Shown one piece after another: positions 40,563 through 60,436 of a DNA stretch of 64,000 bases. This DNA comes from Clostridium sp. 12(A) (GTDB lineage: Bacteria > Bacillota > Clostridia > Lachnospirales > Lachnospiraceae). The notes under the pieces were generated by a model that saw only the letters and a list, made by a program, of their open reading frames with translations, did no database searches and was not told the origin of the DNA. Position numbers and translations under genes: made by a program. Location of the stretch: positions 2,108,001-2,172,000 of the forward strand of contig JAGI01000002.1 of the NCBI GenBank assembly GCA_000526575.1. Reading direction: 5' to 3'. Positions within the stretch are counted from its first letter, which is position 1. Each line of letters opens with the position of its first letter.

Positions 40563-40889
40563 TCATTGTACCTGTTTCTGGCAATTTATATTCTTCTTTT
40601 TTATTGCCAGTTCAATCCGAACCGTATCGTATGTAAAAGTCAGAATCAAGTCTCCCAACTCCATAATTCCGACATCTCTTAATCTGGAATAGCCGATTTT
40701 AACTATGGCATCTCCATCTTTCTTGTCTTTTATTTCCAGACCTGCACTAAAATCCTGTTTATTGATACAGGCCCTTTCAATGGTCTGGCAAGCTCTAAAG
40801 CCTTCTCCTCCTCGACAAGAAAATATATTAACTGTTATTTTACTGTCCTGTCTGCTCATTAGCAGTGCTTCCACAAATTCTATTCTCAT
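40563..40889 (-). CDS. SOS-regulated small hypothetical protein
   Basis: The start is ATG at 40889 after GGGGAG, giving 108 residues; the frame is open upstream but the promoter lies inside that part. The protein looks like a compact alpha/beta fold (MRIEFVEALLMSRQDSK, then alternating strands) with no known motif. Its promoter is flanked by two LexA boxes, so expression should follow DNA damage. Its place at the edge of the tail island suggests an inducer, anti-repressor or assembly role, but no family is recognised. Confidence 0.7.
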   Translation of the reverse strand: MRIEFVEALLMSRQDSKITVNIFSCRGGEGFRACQTIERACINKQDFSAGLEIKDKKDGDAIVKIGYSRLRDVGIMELGDLILTFTYDTVRIELAIKKKNINCQKQVQ

Positions 40890-40907
40890 ATCAACTCCCC
40901 AAAACTC

Positions 40908-40919
40908 GAACACATGTTC
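40908..40919. promoter_or_regulatory. LexA box 1 (start-point side)
   Basis: GAACACATGTTC fits the Gram-positive LexA core GAAC-RNRY-GTTC with a 5' C as in the CGAAC consensus. It overlaps the predicted transcription start of the 108-residue gene. Confidence 0.75.
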
Positions 40920-40926
40920 TATGTAT

Positions 40927-40955
40927 ATCATATCACCGGAAATTAATTTCGTCAA
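40927..40955 (-). promoter_or_regulatory. SOS-controlled sigma-A promoter
   Basis: On the minus strand TTGACG (40955-40950) and TATGAT (40932-40927) are 17 bases apart. LexA boxes lie directly on both sides. Confidence 0.8.
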
Positions 40956-40963
40956 GCCCAAGC

Positions 40964-40977
40964 AGAACATATGTTCT
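40964..40977. promoter_or_regulatory. LexA box 2 (upstream side)
   Basis: AGAACATATGTTCT is a perfect 14-bp palindrome containing GAAC-ATAT-GTTC. It lies eight bases before the -35 box; its centre is about 57 bases from box 1. Confidence 0.75.
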
Positions 40978-41006
40978 AAACAAGCTATTGATTTAAAATA
41001 TTATAC

Positions 41007-41032
41007 AAAAAAATAAGCCGGTATCACCGGCT
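41007..41032 (-). terminator. Intrinsic terminator of the recombinase-like gene
   Basis: AGCCGGT and ACCGGCT form a 7-bp stem with a 3-nt loop. On the minus strand TATTTTTTTG follows. The stem touches the stop codon, so the gene is monocistronic. Confidence 0.85.
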
Positions 41033-41913
41033 CACTTGTTCTTAAGTTTAAAACTTTCATAATAACTTTTATAACGATATCTGATATATTTCCCTTCCAA
41101 AAAGAGACCATATTCCCTACCATAGGTTTCTATCTCATCACACAGCTCCATCATCAGACCTCTAACCTTATCATTTGCGTAGAATAACTCGTCCATTTTA
41201 TCAATGGAGCCACATTTCTTATATAAATAATTAATAAATCCTGAGCCATATAAATGAATCTTTTTAAAACCTGCTTTGCTGACGAACCGGGAAGCTGTAT
41301 TGGAAAAATTGATAAAAAAATCAGTTGTGCTCCTATACTGATTCACCTTTACAAAGCTGTTTTCATATGGTCTTATTAACTTAAAACTATCCATATCCCA
41401 GGTATCTAAGTAGATTTTCATAGAATGGTATAAGTCTTCTGACATATTCAGAGTATGATTTTTAAAATAAATTCTGCGATTCTCTAAATCAATCTGATCC
41501 ATGGTAATTTGATATAAATCCCCTGCCTCCCGTATTCCTTCATAGAAAAGCCGTAGAATACAGGCGCCTATTTCCTTGTTATTCAGCTGATTAATTCCAG
41601 TATCTAATTCCAAAGGGGTAATATAAATATTCTTCTTCGCCGATTGATAAATATTTCTAGCTTCCAGCTTATAAGAATCAAATGGATTATAATCTGTATC
41701 ACCGATTAATTGAAATACGTTACAAAGCTTATGGAGGGAGGTCCTTGTTTTATGTATTGTCTGCATGTTATCGAGACCCATAGTAAGAAATAGGGAAAGC
41801 CAATCCTCTTCATTCATGGACAATATATCCTTTTCTGATATCTCCTCCAAAATCTTTTTCTGAATATCGATACCATATTCTTCACATAAATTTGCTAATT
41901 TTTGATATTCCAT
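41032..41913 (-). CDS. Degenerate tyrosine-recombinase-like protein
   Basis: The start is ATG at 41913, six bases after GGAGG, giving 293 residues (MEYQKLANLCEEYGID). A helical N-terminal part resembles a SAM-like arm-binding region. The C-terminal part resembles the recombinase fold: RLFYEGIREAGDLYQITMDQ matches box I including its Arg, followed by a beta pair IDLENRRIYF. At the box II position, KKIHLYGSGFINYL keeps His but lacks the second catalytic Arg. It is therefore probably a DNA-binding regulator, not an active integrase. It is divergent from the RNA polymerase operon and may control it. Confidence 0.55.
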   Translation of the reverse strand: MEYQKLANLCEEYGIDIQKKILEEISEKDILSMNEEDWLSLFLTMGLDNMQTIHKTRTSLHKLCNVFQLIGDTDYNPFDSYKLEARNIYQSAKKNIYITPLELDTGINQLNNKEIGACILRLFYEGIREAGDLYQITMDQIDLENRRIYFKNHTLNMSEDLYHSMKIYLDTWDMDSFKLIRPYENSFVKVNQYRSTTDFFINFSNTASRFVSKAGFKKIHLYGSGFINYLYKKCGSIDKMDELFYANDKVRGLMMELCDEIETYGREYGLFLEGKYIRYRYKSYYESFKLKNK

Positions 41914-42016
41914 AGTGACCTCCGGTGAAATGGCGCATTTTTTCAACCTTAACACAGGATGATTTGTATGTCAATACGGTTAATATTTTTGAATGTTTAC
42001 AATTATTTCATCCCTG

Positions 42017-42212: not shown

Positions 42213-42386
42213 ATGGACTATCATAGAAAAACAAAGGTTCCCACCAGGGAAGAATTTCATAGAATGTATGCCGGTGAGATAAGCGTAGATGATTTCTGCA
42301 CCCATCGGTCGAAAAAACGTAAAGTTCCTCATTATACTCTGGAAGAACGAAAGCTTCAGTCGTTGAGTAAAAAACTGCACCCATAA
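42213..42386 (+). CDS. Small basic hypothetical protein, 57 residues
   Basis: The ORF MDYHRKTKVPTREEFHRMYA continues to LQSLSKKLHP. It is Lys/Arg/His-rich and mostly helical, with no known motif. A GAAAGGAG site lies about 14 bases before the ATG, rather far. It is the first ORF of the polymerase transcript and ends about 50 bases before the polymerase start. A small basic DNA- or polymerase-binding factor would fit, but this is a guess. A minus-strand ORF overlaps it and is judged less likely. Confidence 0.5.
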   Translation: MDYHRKTKVPTREEFHRMYAGEISVDDFCTHRSKKRKVPHYTLEERKLQSLSKKLHP

Positions 42387-42435
42387 CATACGAATTAACT
42401 ATAACCAATAACAAATGAATCAAGGGGGGATCTTC

Positions 42436-45201
42436 TTGGCAAAGGAAAAATCATGCCATAAATTTATTTATAAAATACCCAGCAAACGACTTTCTCAGTC
42501 GGACTGGAAGCTATCACTGCCGCTGCAAACGGCAATCAAGAATAAAAATGATGTAGTAGCACTTGGTGACAGCCAGCTTTTACGCTGGATTTGTGAACTG
42601 AATGGAATCAAGGACTTAGATCAGGAAGTAAGAAATACTCAATCACAAATAAAACATCAAAAGAAATTACCCAAAAGCGAGGAATCTAAGAGTAAGATCA
42701 AAGAATTATACAAAAAGCTGTATTCCCTTCAATACCAGAAGGATTATTTTTGCATGATCATGAATACAAAAAAAGATTACTTAAGAGCAAACAAAGGCTT
42801 CACCATCAATCAATACTCTTACCGCAGACTGGTGGGAACAAACGGTGGCATTAAAAAATCAACTATCACTTATATAGGTAGTCCCATATACGAAGAAATA
42901 AAAAAACGTATGGATAATGGAAGAGATTTAAGTAAACCATTGATTCCCGCCAAGCTGGAAGCTTATCAGGCTTTAATCTGCAGCAGCTCTACTCCTGTCT
43001 CCATGCCACGGATTGCCATAGTAAAGGATTGCAATGTAACCTTTAAGGAAGATGTAATTCTGATTCAGGATGGAAACAATGACGAACCAGAGATGAGCCG
43101 CCAAAAAGACTACAAAATAAATTACTGCGATTCCGACGGCTATGGACTGATGTCACCGGAATATTCCAGGATTGTAAATAAGGAGCTGTCCGGAGATTCC
43201 TCAAATGAAAATACCATTTCCGGAATCAATACCCGTTTTGCCTGGACCAAAGGAATGCTCTTTACCTTTGATTTTAAAGAGTTTGCTAAAAAAGTGAACC
43301 ACGGAGACTTTACCTTTCAGGATGCCTGGGGGGCGTTACGTGATGTCAGGGATTATGATGTTTTACTTACCACCTCCATGGTTAAGCTATGGGATTCCTA
43401 TGACAGCCTGGAGCACTTTTTAGAATGCTCCTATGAAAATCATTATGAATTTTCCGTTTCAAAGACAACCCCAGATAGATTGGAACATGCGAGAAATGCC
43501 AACTATCAGTTTCTGCAGACCTTTGAATTAACAGACGATGAGCTGTATCAGCTTTGCGAACCTACCATCCGGGAAATTAAAGATGTACTGTTTGATGACT
43601 GGAGGAAAACCATTGTATTTTTAAAAGGGATGAACTTAAATGAGCTTCAGTCCGAGCAATGGGAGCATGACTTTGTAAAAGCTCTGATGATAGATAAGCG
43701 GATGGCAGAGGACCCATTTGTAGTAGGAAAAATCCACAGTATGATACGAAAGCGGATTCAGATGGCTGCCAAAGGGTCCATTAAACTGCCCGGGAACTTT
43801 GCCATGGTATGTGGGGACCCCTACTCTCTTGCCCAGTCCATCTTCGGGCTTCCAGTTACCGGACTTTTAAAGCAGGGAGAGGTTTACCATTCCTATTGGA
43901 AGCAAAGGGATGTCCATGAGATTGCCTGCTTTCGCGCTCCCATGACCTGTCACAATAACATCAGGAGAAGGAAGGTTGTACATAGCAATGAAATGGATTA
44001 CTGGTATCAATATATACAAACCGGGATGATTCTTAATTCCTGGGATTCCACCTGCGATGCCTTAAATGGTGCAGATAAAGACAGCGATGCCTTTTTTACT
44101 ACAAATCATCCGATTATTGTAAAAAACACTAAGAATGCTCCCACCATTGAATGCGTCCAGAAACGAGCGGATAAAGTGATTCCAGAGGAATCCCATCTGG
44201 TACAGGCAAATTTACTTGCATTTGGAGACGAAATTGGTTCCACTACTAATAAAATTACTGCCATGATTGAATTGCAAGCCGGTTTCCCAAAAGACAGCCT
44301 GGAATATCAGACACTGGAATACCGAATTATGTGCGGCCAGCACTATCAGCAGAATTCCATTGATAAGGCCAAAGGTATTCTGTCAAAACCAATGCCAAAG
44401 CACTGGTATGATAAGTCTGCCTGCAGAGCCCTTCCGGAGAACAGCGAGGAAGAGAAAGCATATAAAAAGATATGCCTTGAAATTTGTGCCAGTAAAAAGC
44501 CGTATTTCATGAGATACATCTATCCCGAGCTCATGGCTGATCACAAAAAGTATATCAATGACAGTAATAAGAAATGTATTCGCATGTTCCAAATGCCATT
44601 GGAAGAACTCAAACAAAATCCTGCTAAAACAAAGGAAGCATTAGAATTTCTTAAATATCACCAGGAGGGATTGCCAGTAGGAAATGAACCCTGTACCGTA
44701 AACCGTATCTGCTGGCTTTTTGAGCAGGAATTTCAAGATGTCCTTCAAAAACAAAGAACATCCTCTGCTTTTGATTATTCTATCTTAAAATCAGGAGCGC
44801 CCTATAGCAAACGTGATTATAAAAAGATTGAGAAAATAAAAGGGGAATACGACCTGGATGTGAAACATTATCAGCAGCAGGCTAAAACTCAGCGATTGGA
44901 TAAAGACGAAGTAAGTATGAACCGAACTTTGCTCATTCAAAAATTCAAAGCAGCCTGTGAAGCAATCTGTCCCAATGAAAAAGAGCTTTGCGACATTTTG
45001 CTGGATATGTGCTATACCACCAATAAATCAAAGCAGTTCGTCTGGGACATCTGTGGAGAGACCATGATTAATAACTTGCTGAAAAAGAACGACTACGTTG
45101 TCAATTACCCGGTACTGACAGAAGGTCATGGGGAATTTGAGTACGCTGGGGAATCATTTATTATGAACCAAAGGAAACAAAGGGAGGATGAAGAGTCATA
45201 A
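42436..45201 (+). CDS. Single-chain DPBB RNA polymerase-like protein (YonO/eukaryotic RdRP type)
   Basis: The start is TTG at 42436, seven bases after AAGGGGGG, giving 921 residues. The key signature is NGADKDSDAFFTTNHPIIVK, with Asp547, Asp549 and Asp551 in the place of the Mg-binding DxDGD of multisubunit RNA polymerases and of the SGSDLDGD of eukaryotic RNA-dependent polymerases; Ser replaces Gly. Upstream, LPGNFAMVCGDPYSLA (451-466), GLLKQGEVYHSYW (about 478) and CFRAPMTCHNNIRRRKVV (498-515) match the order of RdRP motifs (substrate barrel, 'G-L-x-x-G-E-V', 'RNPCLHPGDVR'). Phage SPbeta YonO is the known bacterial relative. It probably transcribes DNA of this element. Template type and activity are unproven. 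The stop overlaps the presumed next start. Confidence 0.78.
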   Translation: MAKEKSCHKFIYKIPSKRLSQSDWKLSLPLQTAIKNKNDVVALGDSQLLRWICELNGIKDLDQEVRNTQSQIKHQKKLPKSEESKSKIKELYKKLYSLQYQKDYFCMIMNTKKDYLRANKGFTINQYSYRRLVGTNGGIKKSTITYIGSPIYEEIKKRMDNGRDLSKPLIPAKLEAYQALICSSSTPVSMPRIAIVKDCNVTFKEDVILIQDGNNDEPEMSRQKDYKINYCDSDGYGLMSPEYSRIVNKELSGDSSNENTISGINTRFAWTKGMLFTFDFKEFAKKVNHGDFTFQDAWGALRDVRDYDVLLTTSMVKLWDSYDSLEHFLECSYENHYEFSVSKTTPDRLEHARNANYQFLQTFELTDDELYQLCEPTIREIKDVLFDDWRKTIVFLKGMNLNELQSEQWEHDFVKALMIDKRMAEDPFVVGKIHSMIRKRIQMAAKGSIKLPGNFAMVCGDPYSLAQSIFGLPVTGLLKQGEVYHSYWKQRDVHEIACFRAPMTCHNNIRRRKVVHSNEMDYWYQYIQTGMILNSWDSTCDALNGADKDSDAFFTTNHPIIVKNTKNAPTIECVQKRADKVIPEESHLVQANLLAFGDEIGSTTNKITAMIELQAGFPKDSLEYQTLEYRIMCGQHYQQNSIDKAKGILSKPMPKHWYDKSACRALPENSEEEKAYKKICLEICASKKPYFMRYIYPELMADHKKYINDSNKKCIRMFQMPLEELKQNPAKTKEALEFLKYHQEGLPVGNEPCTVNRICWLFEQEFQDVLQKQRTSSAFDYSILKSGAPYSKRDYKKIEKIKGEYDLDVKHYQQQAKTQRLDKDEVSMNRTLLIQKFKAACEAICPNEKELCDILLDMCYTTNKSKQFVWDICGETMINNLLKKNDYVVNYPVLTEGHGEFEYAGESFIMNQRKQREDEES

Positions 45202-46141: not shown

Positions 46142-46153
46142 GAACATACGTTC
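46142..46153. promoter_or_regulatory. LexA box 3, before the tail genes
   Basis: GAACATACGTTC, with a 3' G, fits GAAC-RNRY-GTTCG. TAATAT further downstream could be a -10 box with this element over the -35 region, but the promoter is not clear. It implies SOS control of the tail genes from 46.3 kb on. Confidence 0.65.
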
Positions 46154-46225
46154 GATTGTAATTTTACTAATATGGAAAGGTACAAAGAATCCATTCCTTT
46201 CTCATAACACTCCTTGGCACCGGTG

Positions 46226-46249
46226 GTCCGATTGACGCTGTCGTCGGAC
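46226..46249 (+). promoter_or_regulatory. Leader hairpin before the tail genes
   Basis: GTCCGA (46226-46231) pairs with TCGGAC (46244-46249), with an inner GAC/GTC pair. It lies in the leader between LexA box 3 and the first tail gene. Only a broken T-run follows, so it may be an attenuator. Confidence 0.4.
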
Positions 46250-46326
46250 TGCCGTTTATTTGTACCGGTTGAGAGTATGACTAAAATTATGGAATTATGT
46301 ACATTTATCAGAAAGAAGGTATTACC

Positions 46327-46716
46327 ATGAAAAAACGCATTTTTCCAAACGTGGATCATTTGATAAGTGAAATAATCTCACTGGCTGATTCTTCTTCCCC
46401 TTCTGTTCAGGAAATTAATATTGTAGCCGGATATGTACATCTTTGCTCTATATTAAATGCAATCGTGAAAAACAGCGATTACCAGCTCTGCAATGTAAAG
46501 CTGAGCGATTTTCATGTGGATGGATACAGAGACGAATACATACTTACTTTATCTGACAAAAAGATATGGTGTCAGGAAGCGAAGAATGAAAAAGGATACT
46601 TATGGGTGGATGGAATTTTAACCTATGTCCATTCCGATTGCAGCAGCGCATTCGTAATAAAGAACAGGGAACAGCCTATGTTAGAATTTGAATTTATTTA
46701 TGAAGAGGAAAGATAG
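46327..46716 (+). CDS. Hypothetical tail-module protein, 130 residues
   Basis: The ATG at 46327 follows GAAGG; an earlier in-frame ATG at 46297 lacks a ribosome site. The protein begins with a helical segment (KKRIFPNVDHLISEIISLA) and has a beta-rich second half (ILTLSDKKIWCQEAKNEKGY). It overlaps nothing and ends five bases before the next gene, so coupling is likely. No family is recognised. As the first gene after the SOS box it could be regulatory or structural. Confidence 0.6.
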   Translation: MKKRIFPNVDHLISEIISLADSSSPSVQEINIVAGYVHLCSILNAIVKNSDYQLCNVKLSDFHVDGYRDEYILTLSDKKIWCQEAKNEKGYLWVDGILTYVHSDCSSAFVIKNREQPMLEFEFIYEEER

Positions 46717-46720
46717 TTCT

Positions 46721-47542
46721 ATGAAATTAGATTACGGAACACTTATCAGCATATCACCTTTGGAGCTAAAAAACGGCCTGGGCATCCGTTCTCCCCTGCT
46801 AAGAGAAATTGAGGCCCTCTCCTTTCCGGTTTACCAATCCTTCCTTGGCGTTTTATTGCTGGACATTGAATCCTATTACAGTGGAATGGATAAGAATGGA
46901 CCGGATTACTTTGCAAACTATTCCCACCAGGAAAAGCAAGCCATTTGCCAGATTCGAGAGGAATATAATCATTTGAACCTGGAGGAAAAGGAAGGGATTT
47001 TGCCCATAGACATTTTCTCCTATGATACAAAGCTTTTAAACAGCGTAACAGAGGCACTGTCCTTTTTTCTGGATTGCCGTCTAAGCTATTCCCATGAACA
47101 TAAGGGTTTTATTGCAATCGATGGAAAGAGGACTGATTGCCATGTACCAAGAGAAATTTATTCTCTGGTTACAGAACTCATTTTACAGCGAAATGGTATC
47201 TTTCCTTCCAAGACAGTTATAGAAAAGCCAAAATTCAAAAGCGAGATGGCAAAAAAACTATATTATCGTGCCAAAGAGGCGGAACAAAAAAGAGAAAAGA
47301 GCAGAGATAACAGTGCAAGTATGGATTTGCCCAATATTTTATCTGCGGTTGCTGCCAGACACCCCTCCCTAAACATGCTAAACATATGGGATATTACAGT
47401 CTATCAGCTCTATGACCAATTTAAGCGGCTGCAAAACAATACGCTCTATGACATTCAATCCATGTCAGTAGCCGCATGGGGAGACAGTAAAAACAATTTC
47501 GACCCTTCTCAATGGTACAAAAACTTAAACACCGAAAATTAA
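46721..47542 (+). CDS. Tail-module protein, possible assembly chaperone
   Basis: The start is ATG at 46721 after GAGGAAAG, giving 273 residues. The N-terminal part opens LDYGTLISISPLELKNGLGI, a pattern I associate with Gp15-like phage proteins of tail modules. The C-terminal 75 residues (AVAARHPSLNMLNIWDITVY then LYDIQSMSVAAWGDSKNNF) resemble tail assembly chaperones. It precedes the tube gene. An intrinsic terminator begins at its stop codon. The chaperone role is inferred. Confidence 0.6.
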   Translation: MKLDYGTLISISPLELKNGLGIRSPLLREIEALSFPVYQSFLGVLLLDIESYYSGMDKNGPDYFANYSHQEKQAICQIREEYNHLNLEEKEGILPIDIFSYDTKLLNSVTEALSFFLDCRLSYSHEHKGFIAIDGKRTDCHVPREIYSLVTELILQRNGIFPSKTVIEKPKFKSEMAKKLYYRAKEAEQKREKSRDNSASMDLPNILSAVAARHPSLNMLNIWDITVYQLYDQFKRLQNNTLYDIQSMSVAAWGDSKNNFDPSQWYKNLNTEN

Positions 47543-48452: not shown

Positions 48453-48668
48453 ATGAAATTTTATTCTTTAGAAGAAGCAAAATCCGTTTATGGAGAGGAA
48501 TCCTTAATTCCTATTTCCTCCTTAAAACAGATTATATTTTACTGTTCCAACGGACTTCAGCCCGAATTCATCTGGGAATCGGAACGACAGGAAGGAAAAA
48601 TCGTCGCCTGGTTCCACAAGGCTAAAAGTGAGCTGATCTATAAGCGCTGGCAGGAAAATAAACCGTAA
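48453..48668 (+). CDS. Small tail-module protein between tube and tape measure
   Basis: This 71-residue ORF has GGAG nine bases before its ATG. The sequence (MKFYSLEEAKSVYGEESLIP) is amphipathic with aromatic residues and a basic C-terminus. Its position between tube and tape measure genes is where tail assembly chaperones usually lie. I see no slippery heptamer at its end. No family is recognised; a small chaperone or adaptor is likely. Confidence 0.6.
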   Translation: MKFYSLEEAKSVYGEESLIPISSLKQIIFYCSNGLQPEFIWESERQEGKIVAWFHKAKSELIYKRWQENKP

Positions 48669-51700: not shown

Positions 51701-54700
51701 TTTAGTTAATTCAATAAATCAGGAATTTCAAAATACTGATAAAATAAGCTCTTCCAGTTTAAAATCCATGGCTAATCAATTTCCTGCTATGGAAAGCGAT
51801 ATAGAAAATTATAAAAATGGCTTAATCAGTTCGAAGGCACTACATGACCAGCTATTAGAAGTTTACAAGAATGACGCAGAATCTTTTCAAGTTAACATGG
51901 TTAACAAACTTAGTGAGAATGATTCTTTTTATGATAACGTAAGAAAGAATAATCAAAGCTTATTCGTAGACCTAGCAATCGCATATAAAGATGATCTAAA
52001 AAACTGGAAAAATCTTATGACTGCAAAAGGTAGAATGAAGCTTGCTTTAGAAAAGACACTCTCTGGTATGTGGACTGGTAAATATGGAGAAGCCGGTTCC
52101 TATGGTTCTTTTGAAAACAACATTAAAGAGGGAAAAGATGGTCAAGTAACTGTAATTTCAGATGACCCTACCGCAATATACGAAAAGGGATTTCAGAATA
52201 TAGAGGCAGAGGCATATAAATACAATGTGCTCATCAGACAATTAAATGAGGCTGCAAAAGCTGAAATAACTATGCCCGAAATAACAAACTCAAACTCTGG
52301 AAGTAAAGCAACATCTTCACCCAACAAAACATCATCTGTTCAAAAGCAAAAGTTTGATTGGGCCGAACGCCATGAGAAATACCAAGATGACAAGAGGAGT
52401 AAATTAAAAGATGCCTCCTCAAATACCTACATCGACTACCTGGGCATATCAGAAAATGATTTTAAACGTGGCAAGGAAATCTTAGATAATGAAGCTCCCA
52501 CCATAGAGCAGCTAGAAGAACTGAAAAACATGGCCGAGAAATCAGGGATATCCATCAATGATCTAACTCGCACATTAACAAGCGGAACCTGGACTGCCTC
52601 CCGCCAAAGCGCATTACAGCAGCTAGTGGAACACGATAAAGCTGCCCTGGAAGATCAGACAAAAATAATTGACCAGTATCAGTCTCAATATGACGCTGCC
52701 CTCTCAAAAATAGACCCCGATTACAGAAGTAAAATAGAGACAGGGGAACTGTCCACCGAAAATCTTTCAGGAGCGGAAGCAGAAAACGTACAGTCTGCCA
52801 TAGATGCATACGATAAGCTAAAAGCATCAAAAAACAAACAAATTGATCTACAAAAAAATTATACCGAAAGCTTTATGGCCAGCTATGAAAATCAAGCAGC
52901 AGCCGTTAAAGCGGAAAATGATGAACTAAAAGCCTCAAGCTCACTCATTGAAAAACAGATTGCCTACATGAAATCAGCCGGTGAACTCATAGATGCTTCC
53001 ATTTATAACAAGCTGATCGAGCAATCAGAAAAACAGGAAGCAAACACCCAACGGCTGATAGAAATCAAGCGAAAAGAAATGCAGGATTTAAGAAAGCAAA
53101 ATCAAAACTCCGAAAACTCCGAATCCTATCAAAAGCTTGAGCAGGAAGTCAGTGACTTGGAATCCTCTATTCTGGACTTGAAGAAGTCTCAGGAAGAATA
53201 CAATTTCCAGCTTCTAAAAATGCCAATTGAGCACATGGAAACAGTCGCTGGAATGTACAAGAACATCCAGTCTGCCATGGAAAATTGGAACAGTGAACTG
53301 GAGGCTTCCGGCAAAAAAGCAGATAGTAACTACTATCAGAAGTTAATTTCAAACGGCTTCACCCTGATGGATCAATACCAAAAACAGGCCGCACTAATTG
53401 AAGATGTCATGAATGAATACGATGCCGGTACTGACAATTGGAATGAATTATACAGCAAGCTTCAAAATGTAAACTCAGAAATGTCCTCCATGGTCCAAAA
53501 TCTCCACAAATGGAACGAAGCACTTTTAAAAATGCCGCTGGAAAAGATCACCGCTAATTCCTCCGATCTGCAAAAGCTATTAAGCGGCCTGGAATCCGTA
53601 AAAGGAGAATATGATACCGTCATCAGCGCTGTAACAGGTGCCATTAATGACCAGGTCAAAGCCATCAATGAGCAAAAAGAGGCTGTCAACGAGGAATATG
53701 AAGCGTCAAAAAAATCATTACAGGATAAATTAGATCTATTAAGCAAACAAAATGAAAAGCTTAAATTGCAGCAAAGATACGAACAATCCTTATATGATCT
53801 TCAAAAGGTCAACCGTCAGGCGACTGAAAAAGTAATCCGAGATGGACAGACAGTTTACGAGCAGGATGCTGACAAGCTTAGGCAAGCAAAAGAAGCGGTG
53901 CAGGATGCTAAGTTTGACTTAGAAACCAATGAGCTGAAAACCCAAATCGATAACCTGCAGGAAACCCTTAACGGCTTAAACGATACCTACCAGGAGCAGC
54001 TGGAATCCTTACAGAAAATATCTGATAAATGGTCTGAAATCAACGGAAAAATCTCTCAGGCACAGAACGAGTCCAAAGCCGATGAAATTCTAGGAAAAGG
54101 CTGGAAGGATAAGATCTTATCCGGCAATGACACACAGCTCTTTCAGAACATCACACAGATGTATACAGGTATTTCAGAACAAATCCTACAGTATAAAGAG
54201 CAAATCGATGCCACCAATCAGATTTCTACTCTCCTTGAAAGCTATATTGCCTCCTACAAGGAGGGAACTCTAAGCTATAACCAGGCTCTGACTGGAATCA
54301 ATAATCTCCTATCCCAGCTCAACCAAAAGATGCCTGCTGTCGATGGTCTTCAAAACTTATACGATTATTACGGTGCCATAAAAGGAACTGCTGCTAACGG
54401 TGACAGCATATTTTCTGAGATTCAGAAGAGCTTAGCAGCCACTGCCGGAGACCTTGTAAAATCTCTGGAGCAGTATAATAAAAATTACGGAGCCATCTCC
54501 GAATATACCTCCAGCTGGCAGCAGCTGACGGATAATGTAGCTTCTATGCTACGTGTATTAAAAGAGGTCCGGGATAATTTAAAATCCACAGAGGACGACG
54601 ACGATGAGGATAAAAAGAGTAACAAGAAGTCTAACGGCGAGCCATACATAGGCGGTGGCTGGGTAAGCGGAGGACCAGGTGACCCTGGCGCCAGATCCCT

Positions 54701-55067
54701 TAAAATCGGCATTCAAGGCGGACTAATCGGTAACAGTACCCCCTTTGACCGGGAAGCAAAAATGAAGCTCTTAGGTCTTAAGAAACTGGAGCCCGACGAA
54801 TTTCCAACAATTCTTCATAAAAATGAAGCCGTTTTCAACACTGAACAGCAGGATACTCTTCTCTCCAACTTGGGCCAGGCCTGGAACTATACTCCATTTT
54901 CTTCATCATTTCTCACAGACATATCAAAAGGAGTGGAACAGACAACCACGAATTTCGAATTTGGAGATATCCGCATAGAATCATGCAGCAATGCAGATGA
55001 GCTGGCACAAGGCATCTTAAATGGCGGCCTGAGAAATGCCATGATTCAGCATACAGGAAAGCGTTAA
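48720..55067 (+). CDS. Phage tail tape measure protein, long non-contractile tail
   Basis: At 2115 residues it is by far the largest protein of the island. A TP901-like core lies at about residues 150-420 (for example SMAKSGYGSVSKELGKLSLL and SQSGSLVGQSFQSVLDQRDR). Membrane-like helices lie at about 585-610. Long coiled coils fill 625-760 and 1350-1850. The C-terminal domain after residue about 1970 is Gly-rich (IGGGWVSGGPGDPGARSLKI). The usual 1.5 Å per residue predicts a tail of about 320 nm, far longer than that of the left cluster. The central part (about 50.2-52.3 kb) is more AT-rich than both ends, suggesting module exchange. Confidence 0.9.
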   Translation: MADNDSMLKLTAALDKAKSTKQLNQDIKNIEKTINQLHLMAKLYQGESRTQVNASIKELEKKVDVIRLKAEIDNKKLKADLENALSSVSLKEIKISEQGMKVSAMKIAQSLNSVLSKYTILPKIDIKPEGLKKDLTGIQSKINSVTTAFGLARTGIVKFKQSTATLKEISSILNDISKAAGMSREEIKKLGKESFQSAGAYGASAKDYLLSVLSMAKSGYGSVSKELGKLSLLAQSLGSVSAAAADSFIKSMDTAYQYSGNVEELTRALEGVISVSMQSKIPLAELTTAMEANAASAAKAGIGIDQLTAAEATLIASSSQSGSLVGQSFQSVLDQRDRMNQSSQQLTEPIKRLEEMANSYSSISSQNDVSLFGDMDSQEMSNPIKVLLEQWSLYEQLLSNYSNGSQAAMEAASATANTWESQLISLQNSWDSFIYSLTSQNQSLGVGLFLEQTLVSLETVEENLKQIPQMLEGINGITPNADNKSLKSDSTMSPISFDVKSILEPANNLLDFSKSVDELEESLIKGEYGLNIFSASVAKSHVTLKDYLATCTKKAPASLSGYKAHLKNTGIETDLLRSKTILLNAAMSGIVAIAMQVLSMAVSALGQAIYDHYHQVEIAEKALADAEQKLEDSNSRITSINDKLKETADRLNELNAKGKLTFVEQEEVEKLKTYNEELNRQLLAEKAINEYNKQNERKKTLDYLNAETDYTEYNGFTPSLPNRAGAPVSQAKIFTRSGTVLDKTSSELAEIERLKSELEGKKVEVDRIKASDPKGYKWDIKYQNTDKERTILEGRIKELETTLAEEIPKITEKLYSLDSKNDKDAISKIKFILNSYIRQSPDITPEEKFNNIWNSEEFSNSKNLLTTQVGSGNFIGIKPIFDINLQKLASETGLGYAETYQKVISAAQQQINDEMNNNFIKSFSGLPINEIKDYFNQLDTGDLNETTITSFENLNKIIQSTGVSSASAIENIKNFSKNIDFTPELEANMKKVADLVNSINQEFQNTDKISSSSLKSMANQFPAMESDIENYKNGLISSKALHDQLLEVYKNDAESFQVNMVNKLSENDSFYDNVRKNNQSLFVDLAIAYKDDLKNWKNLMTAKGRMKLALEKTLSGMWTGKYGEAGSYGSFENNIKEGKDGQVTVISDDPTAIYEKGFQNIEAEAYKYNVLIRQLNEAAKAEITMPEITNSNSGSKATSSPNKTSSVQKQKFDWAERHEKYQDDKRSKLKDASSNTYIDYLGISENDFKRGKEILDNEAPTIEQLEELKNMAEKSGISINDLTRTLTSGTWTASRQSALQQLVEHDKAALEDQTKIIDQYQSQYDAALSKIDPDYRSKIETGELSTENLSGAEAENVQSAIDAYDKLKASKNKQIDLQKNYTESFMASYENQAAAVKAENDELKASSSLIEKQIAYMKSAGELIDASIYNKLIEQSEKQEANTQRLIEIKRKEMQDLRKQNQNSENSESYQKLEQEVSDLESSILDLKKSQEEYNFQLLKMPIEHMETVAGMYKNIQSAMENWNSELEASGKKADSNYYQKLISNGFTLMDQYQKQAALIEDVMNEYDAGTDNWNELYSKLQNVNSEMSSMVQNLHKWNEALLKMPLEKITANSSDLQKLLSGLESVKGEYDTVISAVTGAINDQVKAINEQKEAVNEEYEASKKSLQDKLDLLSKQNEKLKLQQRYEQSLYDLQKVNRQATEKVIRDGQTVYEQDADKLRQAKEAVQDAKFDLETNELKTQIDNLQETLNGLNDTYQEQLESLQKISDKWSEINGKISQAQNESKADEILGKGWKDKILSGNDTQLFQNITQMYTGISEQILQYKEQIDATNQISTLLESYIASYKEGTLSYNQALTGINNLLSQLNQKMPAVDGLQNLYDYYGAIKGTAANGDSIFSEIQKSLAATAGDLVKSLEQYNKNYGAISEYTSSWQQLTDNVASMLRVLKEVRDNLKSTEDDDDEDKKSNKKSNGEPYIGGGWVSGGPGDPGARSLKIGIQGGLIGNSTPFDREAKMKLLGLKKLEPDEFPTILHKNEAVFNTEQQDTLLSNLGQAWNYTPFSSSFLTDISKGVEQTTTNFEFGDIRIESCSNADELAQGILNGGLRNAMIQHTGKR

Positions 55068-55101
55068 CAATGACGGAGAAATGGAAAGGAAGTGAACTCA
55101 A

Positions 55102-55374
55102 TTGAATCTGCAAGATGTCTATAAAAAGCTGGTGGAGGACATTCATTACTTATTTAAAAATGCAGCCGAAACCATGAAATTTGACCGCACATTCCGTGCC
55201 AAGGTCATTGGCCCTGCTGCCAAAGGGAAATACACCATTTCCTACAAAAATAGAACGCTCACAGCCAGAGGCAGCCAAAATCTTTTACCAAATGATACTG
55301 TTTGGGTCTGCGCTCCCTGTAATGACTGGAATTCCTTATTTATTCAGGCAACAGAGCCAAAAGAGAGTTCCTGA
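55102..55374 (+). CDS. Small distal tail-module protein, OB-fold-like
   Basis: The start is TTG at 55102 after GGAAGTGA, giving 90 residues. An amphipathic helix (LQDVYKKLVEDIHYLFKNAA) is followed by a beta-barrel-like stretch FRAKVIGPAAKGKYTISYKN and LLPNDTVWVCAPCNDWNSLF. It fits the small OB-like proteins found just after the tape measure in Clostridia phage tails. The role is probably in the tail tip. An alternative frame is open here but lacks a ribosome site. Confidence 0.6.
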   Translation: MNLQDVYKKLVEDIHYLFKNAAETMKFDRTFRAKVIGPAAKGKYTISYKNRTLTARGSQNLLPNDTVWVCAPCNDWNSLFIQATEPKESS

Positions 55375-55420
55375 CCAAAACAGAACCGGATAACCACTCA
55401 AATAAGAAAAGGAGCAGACT

Positions 55421-56476
55421 ATGTATGCAACCATACACCCAATAGAACCATTTGATTCGTCAACTGGAACTACCATTCATTTTTCCTGGCAGGGGAATCA
55501 GATTTACAAAGCAAGGTGCCTCATTAAAGACAATGCTTCTGGAACAACCGTTTACGATAAAACGATCAGCACCATGAAACAAAGCTATTCTCTTCCAGCC
55601 GATACCGGTCTAAAAAACGGCGGCTATTATGTAGCTTATTTATCCGTTTTCGACGTAGACGACAAAGAGTCCACCCTGCAAAGCATAGGAACACCATTTT
55701 ACTGCTATGAGACACCGGAATTTAAATTGTCCGTAAATGCTGGTGATATTTTAAAATCATCAGCATTTCAAACTGGACTCGTCTACTCCCAGAAGCAGAA
55801 TGAGCCCCTTAATTCCTTTTGCATTACGCTCTACACCTATCAGAAAACAGAGCTGCAGACCTCTGGCGATCTATACGATACCAGTGAATTAACGTATCTC
55901 ATTTCTGGACTTGAAAATGCAAAACAGTACTACATAAGAGCAACAGGAAAGACCCTTCATAACATGAGCCTGGATACCGGCTATATATTATTTACCGTAT
56001 CCTATACTCAGGCTCAGATTTTCAATCCTCTTGAGCTAAACAACAGAGCCGAGCACGGCGCCATAGAAATAAAAAGCAATATCATTTCAACCATTGGCAT
56101 CCCGGAAAAAGATGTCATATATCTTGAAAATGAATTTGCTGACTTAAGAGAGAATTCCGTCACCTATGATATCGGTTTTGAGGTAAAAGGAGACTTCACT
56201 AAGGCATTTCGCTTTCACCGACCGGTGTGTAATGCAAAAATCATTCATTTTACCAATAAAGACCAATGTCATGTAAACATTTATTACAGGGAAGGTATTT
56301 ATTCAGATTCTGGAGGAGAAAAAGCATTTTTTGAGCTGGAATCAGTCTCTTCCGGCGCCAAATATATTCTCTTTACCAAATACCTTCCAATCCCCAAGGA
56401 TACCCAGCAATTTGTGCTCTGCATTAACCGAACCAGCAGCTATTATGAAATGAAAGCTGATCTGGTAAACAAATAG
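55421..56476 (+). CDS. Distal tail protein with Ig/fibronectin-like repeats
   Basis: The 351-residue protein is beta-rich. Two repeat units look fibronectin III-like: one around IHFSWQGNQIYKARCLIKDN and another around LTYLISGLENAKQYYIRATG. The rest is a jelly-roll-like region with no catalytic motif. Position after the tape measure points to a tail-tip or host-binding component. GGAG precedes the ATG. Confidence 0.6.
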   Translation: MYATIHPIEPFDSSTGTTIHFSWQGNQIYKARCLIKDNASGTTVYDKTISTMKQSYSLPADTGLKNGGYYVAYLSVFDVDDKESTLQSIGTPFYCYETPEFKLSVNAGDILKSSAFQTGLVYSQKQNEPLNSFCITLYTYQKTELQTSGDLYDTSELTYLISGLENAKQYYIRATGKTLHNMSLDTGYILFTVSYTQAQIFNPLELNNRAEHGAIEIKSNIISTIGIPEKDVIYLENEFADLRENSVTYDIGFEVKGDFTKAFRFHRPVCNAKIIHFTNKDQCHVNIYYREGIYSDSGGEKAFFELESVSSGAKYILFTKYLPIPKDTQQFVLCINRTSSYYEMKADLVNK

Positions 56477-56491
56477 AAAGGCGGTGATATT

Positions 56492-57385
56492 ATGTTTTTA
56501 GGAAGCTGTTTTGCCTCAAGCAAGGAATCCCTGGCCTCATCACCAGCCTCATCTTCTGACATTTCCGACCTAACCATAGCTTCAGCAGTCTATGATGAAA
56601 TATTCGCAACGGAAAAAGTAATTGAACTGTCAGAAGAAGACCATGCCTTTCCTTCTGTCTGGGGCTTTGATACCAGGCTTCACGCTCTGTTTCAGGGAAC
56701 CCTCTACGGTGGAAATGTCAGCTTTACAGAGAGCATCGTAGAATCCATACGAATTAAAAAGAAGGTAAAGGGCGATAAAAAATTTAAGACAATCTTTGAA
56801 AAGCCCATCCGCTCCAATGAAGATTTTAAAATAGAGTTAATGGATTACTATGAACCAGTAGGAACGGTGGAGTACGCCTATGTACCAGTCATTTCCGGCG
56901 GTGAAAATAACTATATTACAAACCGTGTAGAATCCTGGTTTGACTCCTATTTTATCTGTGAAAAGAATATCTCCTATCCTATGGTCCTGGACACAAGATT
57001 CGATAAAAAGCTGACTCAGCGCACCAATCTCATTGAGCTTTTGGGAAGAGAAAAGCCAGTGGTATTAAAGGGTGGAAAAATCCGATATTTCTCCGGAGAT
57101 ATCTCCTGTACCTTTATTGAATTAAAAGAAGATGGCTGGCAAACTCATTCGTCATGGGAATACCGAAATGGAATCTATGATTTCCTTACCAACGGCCAGC
57201 CAAAGATCCTGAAGGATTTTCTTGGAAATGTCTATATGGTGGCTGTCACAAGCAGTGATATCACAGAAGAATCCGATCATTATGAGCACGTAACCACGAA
57301 ATTCAGCGTTGCGGAATGCGGCAGTGCCTATGAAGCCGGAGACCTTTATGACAACGGCTTTATTGACGCCGACATTGACAGGTAG
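56492..57385 (+). CDS. Distal tail structural protein
   Basis: The 297-residue protein has an N-terminal Ser/Ala-rich stretch (ASSKESLASSPASSSDISDL), then a beta-rich body with WGFDTRLHALFQGTLYGGNV and KYFSGDISCTFIEL-like strands. It lies 15 bases after the previous gene behind GGCGGTGA and nine bases before the next gene. No named family is recalled. Distal tail (Dit-like) proteins are the nearest functional guess from position. Confidence 0.55.
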   Translation: MFLGSCFASSKESLASSPASSSDISDLTIASAVYDEIFATEKVIELSEEDHAFPSVWGFDTRLHALFQGTLYGGNVSFTESIVESIRIKKKVKGDKKFKTIFEKPIRSNEDFKIELMDYYEPVGTVEYAYVPVISGGENNYITNRVESWFDSYFICEKNISYPMVLDTRFDKKLTQRTNLIELLGREKPVVLKGGKIRYFSGDISCTFIELKEDGWQTHSSWEYRNGIYDFLTNGQPKILKDFLGNVYMVAVTSSDITEESDHYEHVTTKFSVAECGSAYEAGDLYDNGFIDADIDR

Positions 57386-57393
57386 GTGATACA

Positions 57394-58890
57394 ATGGCAT
57401 ATGAAGTAACTCAAAAAGACTTGGATTTATTAAAGCAGGGCACCCAGGAAATATATTTAAAAGTTGAGCTAATGGATTCCACGTTTAAAACACTGGACTC
57501 CCTGGAAGGTCAAATCATAAATGACAGCTACAGCCAGGACAGCGAATCCATACAGCGCAGAAGTTACCAATTTGATCTGGCGGTCTTAAACTCTTCCTTT
57601 GTTATTGGGAAGGATAAAAAAATATGGCTGGACAAACGCCTGCGAGTCTTTTACGGAATCAAATCCGTAAGGACAAAAGAAATCATCTGGTATCAACTGG
57701 GAGTATTCTGCTATCTGAGCATGAAGTACTCCTTTTCTAATACCGAAAAAAAGCTATCCGTATCCTGTGGGGACTTAATGTCCCTATACGATGGCACTTT
57801 AAATGGCCATCTTCATGGATACGGCTCTTCCAACAACGCCCCAGATTATGCTGTTCAAAATCTCACCATACCAGCCGGGGAGGATATCCGGGCTTCTGTC
57901 ATTGCAACCATGAAGGAGGCCGGAATCGAAAAATATATTGTTGAGGACATTGGAAAACCCATTCCCTATGACTTGACCTTTGCAACCGGAAGTACATACG
58001 CTGATATCTGGCAAAAAATCCGGGATCTATACGATTCCTGGGAATTTTATTTTGATGCAGACGGAACCTTTATCTGGCGACAGATTCCCACCTGCTTGGA
58101 AGACCCGGTCATTTTAAACGATACGGTCATGCAGAACATCGTAGTAAATGAAAATGCAGATTCCAAATTTGACGGAATCTATAATGTCACTGAAGTCTGG
58201 GGCAAGGTATTAACACTGGAACAGGAAGACCGATACGCAGACACTTCCAGCTATACCAACAATACGTATGGGATTAACCTTAGTATGTACACGGCTTGGG
58301 AAAGCGTAGACAACCTGACACAGCTGGCATTTAAGGCAAGCGACGACAACCTTGCTGCGCCAAAATTTACAATCAACAACTTCTCTCCCACCATTCCTAT
58401 TTATGACGGTGATGGGAATCCATTGAAGCCAGGGGCGATGAAAAAGGATAATATTTACGTCTTCCGTTATAGACGTCTCACACCTGACCAAAACGCCTTG
58501 TTCCTGTTAGGTCAGTTTCAGTGCTATGGAAGATACGTGGAGGAATCACCGGATTGTCCCTACTCAGTGAAAAATATTGGTTACGAAATTTCGCAATCAG
58601 TAGACTACGGTAATTTAAGTGACGATGCGGCCTGCTACAATCAGGCAGAATTTCTAACCTATAAGTCAACCGCCATGTTGGATACCATAAATTTAAGTAC
58701 TTTAGTGGTTCCCTGGCTGGAAGTTAACACAAAACTCGAATACACTCCCAGATACAACAAGGAAACCAGCCAGTATATTGTTAAAAATCTAAGCTGGTCA
58801 ACTGGTGACGGAACAATGAGTATGACTCTTTATAAATTTTTAGAGAGCTATTCCTATGTATATGGGAGAAAAAAGAAAGGAGCTAATTAA
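57394..58890 (+). CDS. Tail hub protein, DUF5048-like
   Basis: The 498-residue protein resembles DUF5048, common in tails of Clostridia phages, by its start LKVELMDSTFKTLDSLEGQI and by SVSCGDLMSLYDGTLNGHLH. The order of a double-barrel hub (about 30-260) plus a C-terminal domain ending in WSTGDGTMSMTLYKFLESYS resembles baseplate hub or Tal N-terminal domains. No peptidase or lytic domain is attached. Its stop touches the GTG of the next gene. Confidence 0.65.
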   Translation: MAYEVTQKDLDLLKQGTQEIYLKVELMDSTFKTLDSLEGQIINDSYSQDSESIQRRSYQFDLAVLNSSFVIGKDKKIWLDKRLRVFYGIKSVRTKEIIWYQLGVFCYLSMKYSFSNTEKKLSVSCGDLMSLYDGTLNGHLHGYGSSNNAPDYAVQNLTIPAGEDIRASVIATMKEAGIEKYIVEDIGKPIPYDLTFATGSTYADIWQKIRDLYDSWEFYFDADGTFIWRQIPTCLEDPVILNDTVMQNIVVNENADSKFDGIYNVTEVWGKVLTLEQEDRYADTSSYTNNTYGINLSMYTAWESVDNLTQLAFKASDDNLAAPKFTINNFSPTIPIYDGDGNPLKPGAMKKDNIYVFRYRRLTPDQNALFLLGQFQCYGRYVEESPDCPYSVKNIGYEISQSVDYGNLSDDAACYNQAEFLTYKSTAMLDTINLSTLVVPWLEVNTKLEYTPRYNKETSQYIVKNLSWSTGDGTMSMTLYKFLESYSYVYGRKKKGAN

Positions 58891-59517
58891 GTGAGCTATT
58901 CAGAATACCCACATAGTAAATTCCCAGAAACAATCTGCGACCTGCCAAACATGCAGGACGCCTCTGCCACTCTTCGCCCTGTAATTGAACAGTATAATGA
59001 GGCGTGGATGAATAATGATACGGACAAAATGGCTGCGCTGACAAATCAGTATCCAAATTTGACAAAATCATTATTTAATGCAGATAAATTCAACGTCCTG
59101 CTGGACGGAGTCAAGGCAACACAGAAGTTCTTTAAAGAAGAAGTCGATGAAATGATTCTAACAGTTGCTCAGAAAACAGTTGGGATTAATGATTCAGCGG
59201 AGGGTGAGGACAAGAAGAGAAATGCTTACTCCGCAGAAAAAACTGATTATTTAACCGGCGTTACCATTGCAACCGATATTGAAATACCAGTAGGTGCATG
59301 GGATGAGAATTTAACTTATACTTATTCATCTGATAAGATTCTGGAAAATGACAGAGTGAATGTGTTTTTTAACTCTGACAGTATGTTTCATGCTGCAAAA
59401 GCATTTATTGTTGTGAAAGAAAATACCGGCGCTGGGAACTTTTTATTAAAGGCTAATAAGCTGCCAAAAAGTGCATTGACTATTAGAGAAATTGAGGTGA
59501 TGAGAAAAGATGGCTAA
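58891..59517 (+). CDS. Hypothetical distal tail protein, 208 residues
   Basis: The start is GTG immediately after the previous stop, behind AAAGGAG. Helices dominate the N-terminal half (LRPVIEQYNEAWMNNDTDKM); the C-terminal half is beta-rich with ITIREIEVMRK-like ending. It overlaps the fibre gene by eight bases. No family is recognised. It may connect hub and fibre. Confidence 0.6.
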   Translation: MSYSEYPHSKFPETICDLPNMQDASATLRPVIEQYNEAWMNNDTDKMAALTNQYPNLTKSLFNADKFNVLLDGVKATQKFFKEEVDEMILTVAQKTVGINDSAEGEDKKRNAYSAEKTDYLTGVTIATDIEIPVGAWDENLTYTYSSDKILENDRVNVFFNSDSMFHAAKAFIVVKENTGAGNFLLKANKLPKSALTIREIEVMRKDG

Positions 59518-60436
59518 ATATGGCGTAACTAATATTGCCGGCGGAGGTGGAATCGGATCCGATGAGGTCTCCGTTACAAAGGAATATGTATTAAATGGAA
59601 AAACCTATGTAGGCTCCGATACCAGTGATGAAATTAGTACTGGAACAATGGTTAATAATGGGGCTACAGGGAATCAGAATTTAAATGCTGGTGGCTCTTT
59701 TAGTGTCAAAAAGGGGTATCATGCTCAGGATTTTACAGTAAATGCTAATAATTTAGTAAGTCAGACACAGGGTACGGCAACCTCCGCACATATTTTAAGC
59801 GGCCAAACCGCTTGGGTCAATGGAAATAAAATTAATGGAGGTATACCCATTCAAAAAGGTGATGCAGCTCAAGATCAAGTTTGGAGCACTAACTGGACTA
59901 CTTCAGGAGATGGAAATATATTTATGGGTGTCCGTAATGGTCATTACTTAAATGGGGTAAATTGGATAAGAGCTAATGTTCCTAATTTTATAGCCAGTAA
60001 TATTAAAAAAGGAGTTAGTATTGGAGGAATAATTGGCACATTTGAGGGCTATGTGCCAATAGCTGCAGATTTGTATTTACGCGGAAATAATATTGCTAAT
60101 TGGATATCTGAAAATAGCGCAACTTTTGACACAGGACAGATATCTTCAAACTTTTATAATTTTGGCATCGGAGCAAATTTAAATCTAGTAGGAAAAACCC
60201 AACTAAATGTTCAAGGTATTGCTAAAGCTGGTTCAACTAAAACCTGGGTATTAACAAAAAAAAACAATCAAATTATACAAGAAAACTTAACAATACCTGC
60301 TTCCGGTCAGTTTACCTATTCCTTTAACATATCTGCATACCAAGTTTCTGATAATTTCAAGCTATATACTTATCATGAAAACGGTTCTAACTTAGGAGGT
60401 ATGTATATGGCAATATACAGAATATGGCTAAGTTGA
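59510..60436 (+). CDS. Tail fibre or receptor-binding protein
   Basis: The 308-residue protein has the repeat style of Firmicute tail fibres: 'GxxAWVNGxKIxGxIP' (HILSGQTAWVNGNKINGGIP) and a second imperfect unit (NIKKGVSIGGIIGTFEGYVP). Gly/Asn-rich beta segments follow. The last 120 residues are encoded by more AT-rich DNA, a common sign of exchanged receptor-binding tips. It is the last gene of the tail operon; a terminator follows after about 310 bases. Confidence 0.75.
   Translation: MAKYGVTNIAGGGGIGSDEVSVTKEYVLNGKTYVGSDTSDEISTGTMVNNGATGNQNLNAGGSFSVKKGYHAQDFTVNANNLVSQTQGTATSAHILSGQTAWVNGNKINGGIPIQKGDAAQDQVWSTNWTTSGDGNIFMGVRNGHYLNGVNWIRANVPNFIASNIKKGVSIGGIIGTFEGYVPIAADLYLRGNNIANWISENSATFDTGQISSNFYNFGIGANLNLVGKTQLNVQGIAKAGSTKTWVLTKKNNQIIQENLTIPASGQFTYSFNISAYQVSDNFKLYTYHENGSNLGGMYMAIYRIWLS

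What the first reader, a model, noticed from the sequence alone, without database searches (positions are those of the whole stretch)
40563..60436. SOS-controlled, capsid-less long-tail island with its own RNA polymerase
The island joins a single-chain RNA polymerase-like protein, a zinc-ribbon protein and a complete-looking siphovirus tail module (tube, 2115-residue tape measure, hub, fibre). I see no capsid, portal, terminase, lysis or active integrase gene. Three LexA-type boxes lie at its control points. A dedicated polymerase would be unexpected for a simple tailocin. It could be a tail-like weapon, a satellite using another phage's head, or a new delivery particle.
Basis: partly seen in the sequence, partly recalled or inferred. 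Interest (0 to 1): 0.92.

Follow-up and report, generated by a model that had tools for sequence, protein, structure and literature searches.

The report
Headless phage-tail island with own polymerase
A gut-type bacterium carries a conserved, DNA-damage-controlled set of genes for a headless phage tail, probably a weapon against neighbouring bacteria, that seems to be switched on by an RNA polymerase kept from the phage it came from; related bacteria appear to have made such islands more than once.

Summary
Window 40563-60436 encodes an SPbeta/YonO-type single-chain RNA polymerase (Pfam RdRP 1.6e-14, three catalytic-type Asp kept), a zinc-ribbon partner, tail tube, 2115-aa tape measure, hub and fibre; no capsid, portal or terminase gene was found. 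The same headless order follows the polymerase at 29 of 54 related bacterial loci and at 0 of 80 related viral loci, of which 56 show terminase/portal instead. In Lacrimispora it sits at fixed chromosomal sites under purifying selection, while the fibre tip and a tape-measure cassette vary. An exact LexA-type box lies upstream of the polymerase at 20 of 28 headless and 0 of 55 headed loci; one window box equals the box beside the host's lexA gene. A conserved motif 83 bp behind the zinc-ribbon gene, shared with three close phage-type loci, is a candidate promoter for the polymerase. Best reading: an F-type tailocin-like weapon expressed by a retained phage polymerase under SOS control, evolved more than once. 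Killing and particle formation are untested, and this copy has no recognisable lysis gene.

The parts
40563..40970 (-). small ORF (135 aa; 108 aa from the inner ATG near 40889) directly behind two LexA-type boxes; possible SOS-induced regulator (inferred)
   Evidence: no Pfam match; homologues found in G321 and G397
40908..40919 (.). LexA-type box GAACACATGTTC
   Evidence: conserved in G321 and, with other centre letters, G397
40965..40976 (.). LexA-type box GAACATATGTTC, identical to the box between the host's lexA and a DNA polymerase IV-type gene
41032..41955 (-). degenerate integrase-like protein, 307 aa; possible repressor (inferred)
   Evidence: phrog_5830 integrase 3.5e-7; the only HxxR motif is at residue 68, none in the C-terminal half
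42213..42389 (+). 57-aa conserved leader protein of the polymerase operon
   Evidence: present in all 12 Lacrimispora loci looked at
42415..45201 (+). YonO-type single-chain RNA polymerase, 928 aa
45225..46073 (+). zinc-ribbon partner of the polymerase, 282 aa; candidate promoter-specificity factor (inferred)
   Evidence: four invariant Cys in 61 relatives; model pLDDT 92.5
46142..46153 (.). LexA-type box GAACATACGTTC at the head of the tail operon
46156..46180 (+). conserved motif TTGTAATTTTACTAATATGGAAAGG, candidate late promoter for the island polymerase
46221..46254 (+). 12-bp RNA hairpin in the leader of the tail operon
   Evidence: one pair changed on both sides; z -3.75
46327..46716 (+). 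o139, homologue of the gene that follows the HU gene in related phages
46688..47542 (+). o284, homologue of the phage gene just upstream of the tail tube
   Evidence: phrog_4051 1e-33; hhalign to BUCT082 20722-21450 89.7%
47599..48327 (+). major tail tube protein, 242 aa
   Evidence: phrog_2729 3.5e-30; hhalign to phage tube proteins but not to capsid proteins
48453..48668 (+). 71-aa conserved protein of unknown function
48720..55067 (+). tape measure protein, 2115 aa (about 334 nm predicted tail)
50070..52320 (+). exchangeable central cassette of the tape measure (about residues 451-1200), low G+C
   Evidence: 27-51% identity in G397 and G406 against 81% or more on both sides; G+C 0.332
55102..55374 (+). 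90-aa conserved tail-tip-region protein
55421..56476 (+). o351, homologue of PMBT24 baseplate hub protein
   Evidence: 30% over 358 aa, 5e-41
56492..57385 (+). o297, tail-tip protein
   Evidence: phrog_27355 1e-43; PMBT24 homologue
57394..58890 (+). hub protein, DUF5048
58891..59517 (+). o208, linker or fibre-associated protein
59510..60436 (+). receptor-binding fibre, conserved N terminus and variable tip

Best explanation
The island is a domesticated, headless late module of a YonO-type siphovirus that makes an F-type tailocin-like particle. DNA damage removes LexA from boxes upstream of the polymerase region and at the head of the tail operon. The phage-derived polymerase and its zinc-ribbon partner are made and transcribe the 14-kb tail operon from one dedicated late promoter just behind them. 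The products assemble into a flexible tail of about 330 nm whose variable fibre binds related bacteria, which it kills by opening the envelope. Shown: gene content, absence of head genes, conservation, selection, LexA-type boxes, the conserved motif. Inferred: use of the motif by the polymerase, particle formation, killing, release.
For: Tail genes homologous and collinear with Enterocloster phage PMBT24, a siphovirus with a 238 nm non-contractile tail and a 1508-aa tape measure (PMC11035940 passages). Headless order at 29 of 54 bacterial loci and 0 of 80 viral loci. Same chromosomal site (QueA to HD-GYP) in five genomes, a second site in others, complete tail order in 9 of 12 Lacrimispora maps. 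dN/dS of tail genes other than the fibre 0.014-0.152 against G398, as for neighbours QueA 0.025 and HD 0.127; fibre 0.571. LexA-type box upstream of the polymerase at 20 of 28 headless and 0 of 55 headed loci; box identity with the host lexA region. YonO transcribes 37 SPbeta genes including the structural ones (PMC5467207 passages). Endolysin in 9 of 29 headless loci.
Against: No holin or endolysin is recognisable in this island, so release is unexplained. 8 of 28 headless loci lack an exact box upstream, and one headed locus has a box in the gap behind the zinc-ribbon gene. The motif is not found in SPbeta or in place in PMBT24 and scores 19 or more in only 12 of 34 headless-group and 3 of 79 other loci. 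G420 keeps a portal-like and connector-like genes. Tail genes are lost in G418 and G419, and only polymerase fragments are left in G403 and G410, so the island is dispensable. No experiment.
Confidence: 0.75

Rival explanations
1. A satellite-like element that supplies its own tails and borrows heads from a helper phage to move its DNA.
For: It lies near a tRNA-Arg gene and an integrase-like gene; the own genome holds a distant terminase-like gene elsewhere (C2:338770, 1.9e-22).
Against: No second copy of the tRNA end in the window, no replication or packaging family matched, fixed sites across species. The related terminase is absent from 8 of the 9 Lacrimispora genomes with a complete island and from 10 of 11 other headless-type genomes tested; no SPP1-type portal in the own genome. 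The terminase model covers only this terminase family.
Confidence: 0.05
2. A decaying prophage remnant without function.
For: No lysis genes here; losses in G418, G419, G403 and G410.
Against: Intact frames and purifying selection across species, conserved control sites, the headless layout in distinct polymerase lineages.
Confidence: 0.08
3. A headless tail used for something other than killing, such as adhesion or delivery of a payload held in the exchangeable tape-measure cassette.
For: A 750-residue tape-measure cassette with two alleles, low G+C and a hydrophobic stretch.
Against: No effector domain recognised in the tape measure; a variable fibre tip is the usual mark of tailocins (recalled).
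Confidence: 0.1

Closest known systems
SPbeta / YonO late-gene system (Bacillus phages)
   Same: Single-chain YonO-type polymerase; YonO transcribes late structural and lysis genes (PMC5467207, passages)
   Different: SPbeta is a complete phage with terminase, portal and capsid; only about 24% identity over 58% of the polymerase; SPbeta has no zinc-ribbon gene annotated behind yonO
Enterocloster phage PMBT24 (proposed Kielviridae)
   Same: Polymerase 36%, tape measure, both hub proteins, tail-tip proteins and a fibre homologous and in the same order
   Different: 100-kb phage with HU, terminase, portal, capsid, holin and lysin
Listeria monocin (F-type tailocin)
   Same: SOS-induced, non-contractile tail-like element with capsid genes missing (PMC6872733, passages)
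   Different: Has holin and endolysin; the term RNA polymerase does not occur in that paper
Rhizoviticin (F-type tailocin of Allorhizobium)
   Same: Headless, SOS-dependent; the paper calls F-type tailocins rare (PMC10811719, passages)
   Different: Chimeric prophage controlled by a LexA-family phage repressor and early-region genes; no YonO-type polymerase in the passages seen

Membership tests
F-type tailocin | tail genes of non-contractile (siphovirus) type, no sheath | tested here: met
   homology to PMBT24 tail genes, PMBT24 imaged as siphovirus; no sheath family matched
F-type tailocin | no capsid, portal or terminase genes | tested here: met
   exception among relatives: portal-like gene in G420
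F-type tailocin | kills related bacteria as a headless particle | not testable with these tools
   needs induction, microscopy and spot tests; hence filed as tailocin-like only
F-type tailocin | SOS induction (usual, not defining) | tested here: met
   in silico only:
F-type tailocin | lysis cassette for release (usual, not defining) | tested here: not met
   none recognised in this island; endolysin in 9 of 29 headless relatives
YonO-type RNA polymerase | sequence homology to YonO and the RdRP fold family | tested here: met
YonO-type RNA polymerase | three catalytic aspartates (DxDxD; motif recalled) | tested here: met
   Asp 554, 556, 558 invariant
YonO-type RNA polymerase | transcribes the late operon of its element | not testable with these tools
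   needs RNA-seq with a deletion
SPbeta-like prophage | HU, terminase, portal and capsid genes behind the polymerase | tested here: not met
MrpR-type repressor (41032-41955) | tyrosine-recombinase fold and kinship to SPbeta MrpR | tested here: inconclusive
   phrog integrase 3.5e-7; hhalign to YopR/MrpR 1.1%; model pLDDT 45, not usable
phage satellite | own integration/excision and packaging functions | tested here: not met
   no duplicated tRNA end, degenerate integrase-like gene only, no packaging family

The most novel reading that the evidence does not exclude
A class of headless-tail weapons of Lachnospiraceae that arose repeatedly by cutting the head genes out of YonO-type phages. Each keeps the phage's multi-subunit-like single-chain polymerase as a private transcription engine with its own promoter, puts it under the host's LexA (in Lacrimispora at two points, the polymerase region and the late promoter), and diversifies both the fibre tip and an exchangeable tape-measure cassette that acts inside the target cell or sets immunity.
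Probability: 0.3. Interest if true: 0.88.

Novelty: new variant of a known kind. Interest (0 to 1): 0.74.

Why it matters
F-type tailocins are described as rare (F-pyocin, monocin, rhizoviticin; PMC10811719 passage), and a review reports that clostridial R-type tailocin prophages keep their capsid genes (PMC10538166 passages). Here a headless, non-contractile family is spread through Lachnospiraceae, and its expression seems to rest on a dedicated polymerase that is not the host's. This would make three questions testable in harmless strains: what promoter a YonO-type polymerase reads (left open in PMC5467207), why a host keeps a second polymerase for one weapon, and how tailocins repeatedly arise from phages.

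Tried and rejected
MrpR idea: I expected the integrase-like gene to be an SPbeta MrpR homologue; hhalign gave 1.1%, PDB profile search only XerC-like 0.035, and the structure model was unusable, so it is not claimed. It is also missing in G398 and G409.

Promoter motif in SPbeta: no convincing site (best 2.8); PMBT24's best site lies inside its polymerase gene; BUCT082's best site (9.3) lies in the gap between the zinc-ribbon-position gene and HU, but three shuffled 64-kb windows reached 11.0, 16.7 and 11.8, so only its place is suggestive. The consensus and matrix were built from sites found here, so scores of those sites are circular. The k-mer scan of the other phage loci gave only pyrimidine-rich and ribosome-site words.

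Zinc-ribbon fold: no PDB match at E 0.001 or better (best sequence match PriX-like 0.008); viral matches are unnamed or loosely named relatives.

Rfam: only the tRNA plus one sub-threshold hit on its other strand in 39000-61200. Tape-measure split in relatives as a known intron: no intron family found in five loci.

Rows dropped: tree used 59 of 128 polymerases (short-context loci, near-copies and part of the pure phage clade removed; G131 removed as long branch); one search used 42 (25 headless, 17 headed; L068 and HU-only loci removed); motif and k-mer scans used 113 loci after removing near-copies. L068 (=G420), with a portal-like hit, was counted as headless by hand because o284, tube and tape measure follow and no terminase or capsid was found. 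In one search the loci of unknown context had a box in 8 of 22, HU-only loci in 0 of 9, and loci with broken polymerase frames in 1 of 8.
Full report
What is there. Window 40563-60436 holds, left to right: a small leftward ORF behind two LexA-type boxes, a leftward integrase-like gene, a 57-aa gene, a 928-aa RNA polymerase, a zinc-ribbon protein, a 223-bp gap with a third LexA-type box, and a rightward tail operon: o139, o284, tube, o71, tape measure (2115 aa), a 90-aa protein, o351, o297, hub, o208, fibre. The flanks are ordinary genes: QueA and a tRNA-Arg on the left, an HD-domain protein on the right.

The polymerase. Pfam RdRP 1.6e-14. tblastn finds 36 phage records, among them Enterocloster phages (35-36% identity over 94%), Bacillus phage BUCT082 (29% over 97%) and the SPbeta group (about 24% over 53-58%). 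Asp 554, 556 and 558 are invariant in six relatives. In SPbeta, YonO transcribes 37 genes including structural and lysis genes, as one operon from a promoter whose sequence was left open (PMC5467207, abstract and passages). A polymerase beside tail genes is therefore inherited phage logic.

Head genes. In PMBT24 the order is polymerase, zinc-ribbon-position gene, HU, DNA-binding protein, terminase, portal, capsid, connectors, major tail protein, tape measure, two hub proteins. PMBT24 tail proteins match the island's in order. The island's o139 is homologous to the gene behind HU in related phage loci, and o284 to the gene just before the tube in BUCT082. The island thus looks like the phage late operon with the block from HU/terminase to the connectors taken out. 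The tube profile matches phage tube proteins (hhalign 69%, 92%, 96%) and none of four capsid proteins (0.1% each).

How general. A scan of one genome per species for the polymerase gave 54 loci; the best 80 of 250 viral hits were also taken. With profiles for terminase, portal, HU, o284, tube, tape measure and endolysin, the 54 genome loci are 29 headless, 6 with terminase/portal, 4 with HU only, 4 neither, 11 with under 4 kb downstream; the 80 viral loci are 56 with terminase/portal, 4 HU only, 3 neither, 17 short, and none headless. Of six HU-only loci searched further, four have a terminase match just beyond the stretch held, on what appears to be the same contig; for L067 and L097 the match lies on another contig number. 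Within a 397-genome sample of the family, 36 have some polymerase of this kind.

Lacrimispora. In 25 genomes of the genus, 15 have a match: 11 full-length close copies, one split frame (G419), two fragments (G403, G410), one with only distant copies (G408). Five genomes, including the window's, carry the island between QueA and the HD gene; others carry it at a second site. Of 12 loci mapped, 9 show the complete tail order without head genes, one ends with its contig (G399), two have lost the tail genes (G418, G419). Against G398, dN/dS is 0.032 for the hub, 0.061 for the tube, 0.104 for the tape measure, 0.101 for the polymerase, 0.025 and 0.127 for neighbours QueA and HD, and 0.571 for the fibre. 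Against G397 the tape measure reaches 0.376, because of the cassette below. The fibre keeps its N terminus but is 60% identical even within the species.

Tape-measure cassette. Residues about 451-1200 are 27-51% identical in G397 and G406 but 83% or more in G321 and G398, with 81% or more on both sides in all four. The allele pattern crosses the species pattern (G397 is 96% identical in the polymerase, G398 80%), so the cassette is exchanged. The stretch 50001-52000 has G+C 0.332 against about 0.40 around it. No known domain was found there.

SOS control. Exact GAACN4GTTC boxes occur within 1600 bp upstream of the polymerase at 20 of 28 headless loci with enough sequence, 0 of 55 headed loci and 0 of 9 HU-only loci; one headed locus has a box in the gap behind the zinc-ribbon gene. 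Near-copies are counted in these numbers and hosts differ, so they are not independent. In the window, G321 and G397 the boxes are at about -1.5 kb (two) and +3.7 kb; in G398 and G406 at about -0.75 and +3.7 kb; in six more at about -0.5 kb, one of these (G399) also at +3.7 kb and one (G412) with a further box at +8.7 kb. Where the +3.7 kb box is not exact it is kept with one changed letter in G409, G411, G412 and G400. The host's lexA gene lies beside a box identical to the window's second one.

Candidate late promoter. Behind the zinc-ribbon gene, directly after the third box, lies TTGTAATTTTACTAATATGGAAAGG, kept in nine aligned Lacrimispora loci. A variant (TTGAGATTTTnnTAATATGGTAAGG) sits 62-83 bp behind the same gene in the phage-type loci L067, L069 and L098, without the LexA box. 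Its two AT-rich parts are too close for a sigmaA promoter (inference). The core matches exactly once in the whole genome, at this place. Against this, it is not seen in SPbeta, in place in PMBT24 or in most other loci. A 12-bp hairpin with one compensated pair follows in the leader.

Origins. Headless polymerases do not form one group. FastTree on 128 rows needs 4 changes between headless (30) and headed (60) rows; IQ-TREE on 59 rows needs 8, at least 4 forced by well-supported branches; holding 25 headless rows together against 17 headed ones is rejected (p-AU 4.8e-54; quick tree, simple model, selected rows). Repeated head loss is the simplest reading; exchange of polymerases between phages and islands would give the same pattern. 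G420 may be an intermediate: a holin-like ORF, a portal-like protein (2e-6 with our profile, but no PHROG or Pfam match) and connector-like genes, without terminase or capsid match.

How it most likely works. Damage, loss of LexA, synthesis of the polymerase and zinc-ribbon partner, transcription of the tail operon from the late promoter, assembly of a flexible tail, binding through the fibre, killing. Scaling PMBT24 (238 nm, 1508 aa; PMC11035940 passages) gives about 334 nm. Release is unexplained in this copy: no membrane-protein holin or endolysin was seen, although 9 of 29 headless relatives have an endolysin. The integrase-like gene may be a repressor, but kinship to MrpR could not be shown.

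Known and new. Ten literature searches (listings and abstracts' beginnings seen, passages of six papers) showed no tailocin with a YonO-type polymerase; the library holds open-licence papers only. F-type tailocins are known (monocin, F-pyocin, rhizoviticin), so this is a new variant of a known kind, provided that it kills.

Noticed in passing
L038:1304-2512, L044:6326-7799, L039:14152-16966: In relatives G157, G289 and G309 the tape-measure gene is in two frames with a 1.2-2.8 kb insert that carries leftward small zinc-ribbon ORFs of one type; in G309 the insert also holds a TwoAYGGAY RNA. PMBT24's relative CB457P1 also has a split tape measure (PMC11035940 passage).
   Followed up: partly
L039:8-173 and L039:16105-16272: Two TwoAYGGAY RNAs (Rfam RF01731, 90.6 and 85.8 bits) on one headless-type contig, one of them inside the tape-measure insert.
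   Followed up: no
L002 around 1501-2030 (own genome C1:297460): A box identical to the window's first LexA-type box lies just upstream of a 144-aa ORF of unknown family far from the island.
   Followed up: partly
L209-L210 (G420), polymerase to tube: A headless-type locus that keeps holin-like, portal-like and connector-like genes but no terminase or capsid match: a possible intermediate.
   Followed up: partly
L198-L199 (G418) and L206-L207 (G419): Polymerase and zinc-ribbon genes kept while the tail genes are gone and a carbohydrate-binding-like remnant is left.
   Followed up: no
own genome C2:338770-339534: A distant terminase-like gene (1.9e-22), probably another prophage.
   Followed up: no
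window 39550-40500: AT-rich stretch without clear genes between the tRNA-Arg gene and the island, with an inverted repeat at 40239-40275.
   Followed up: no
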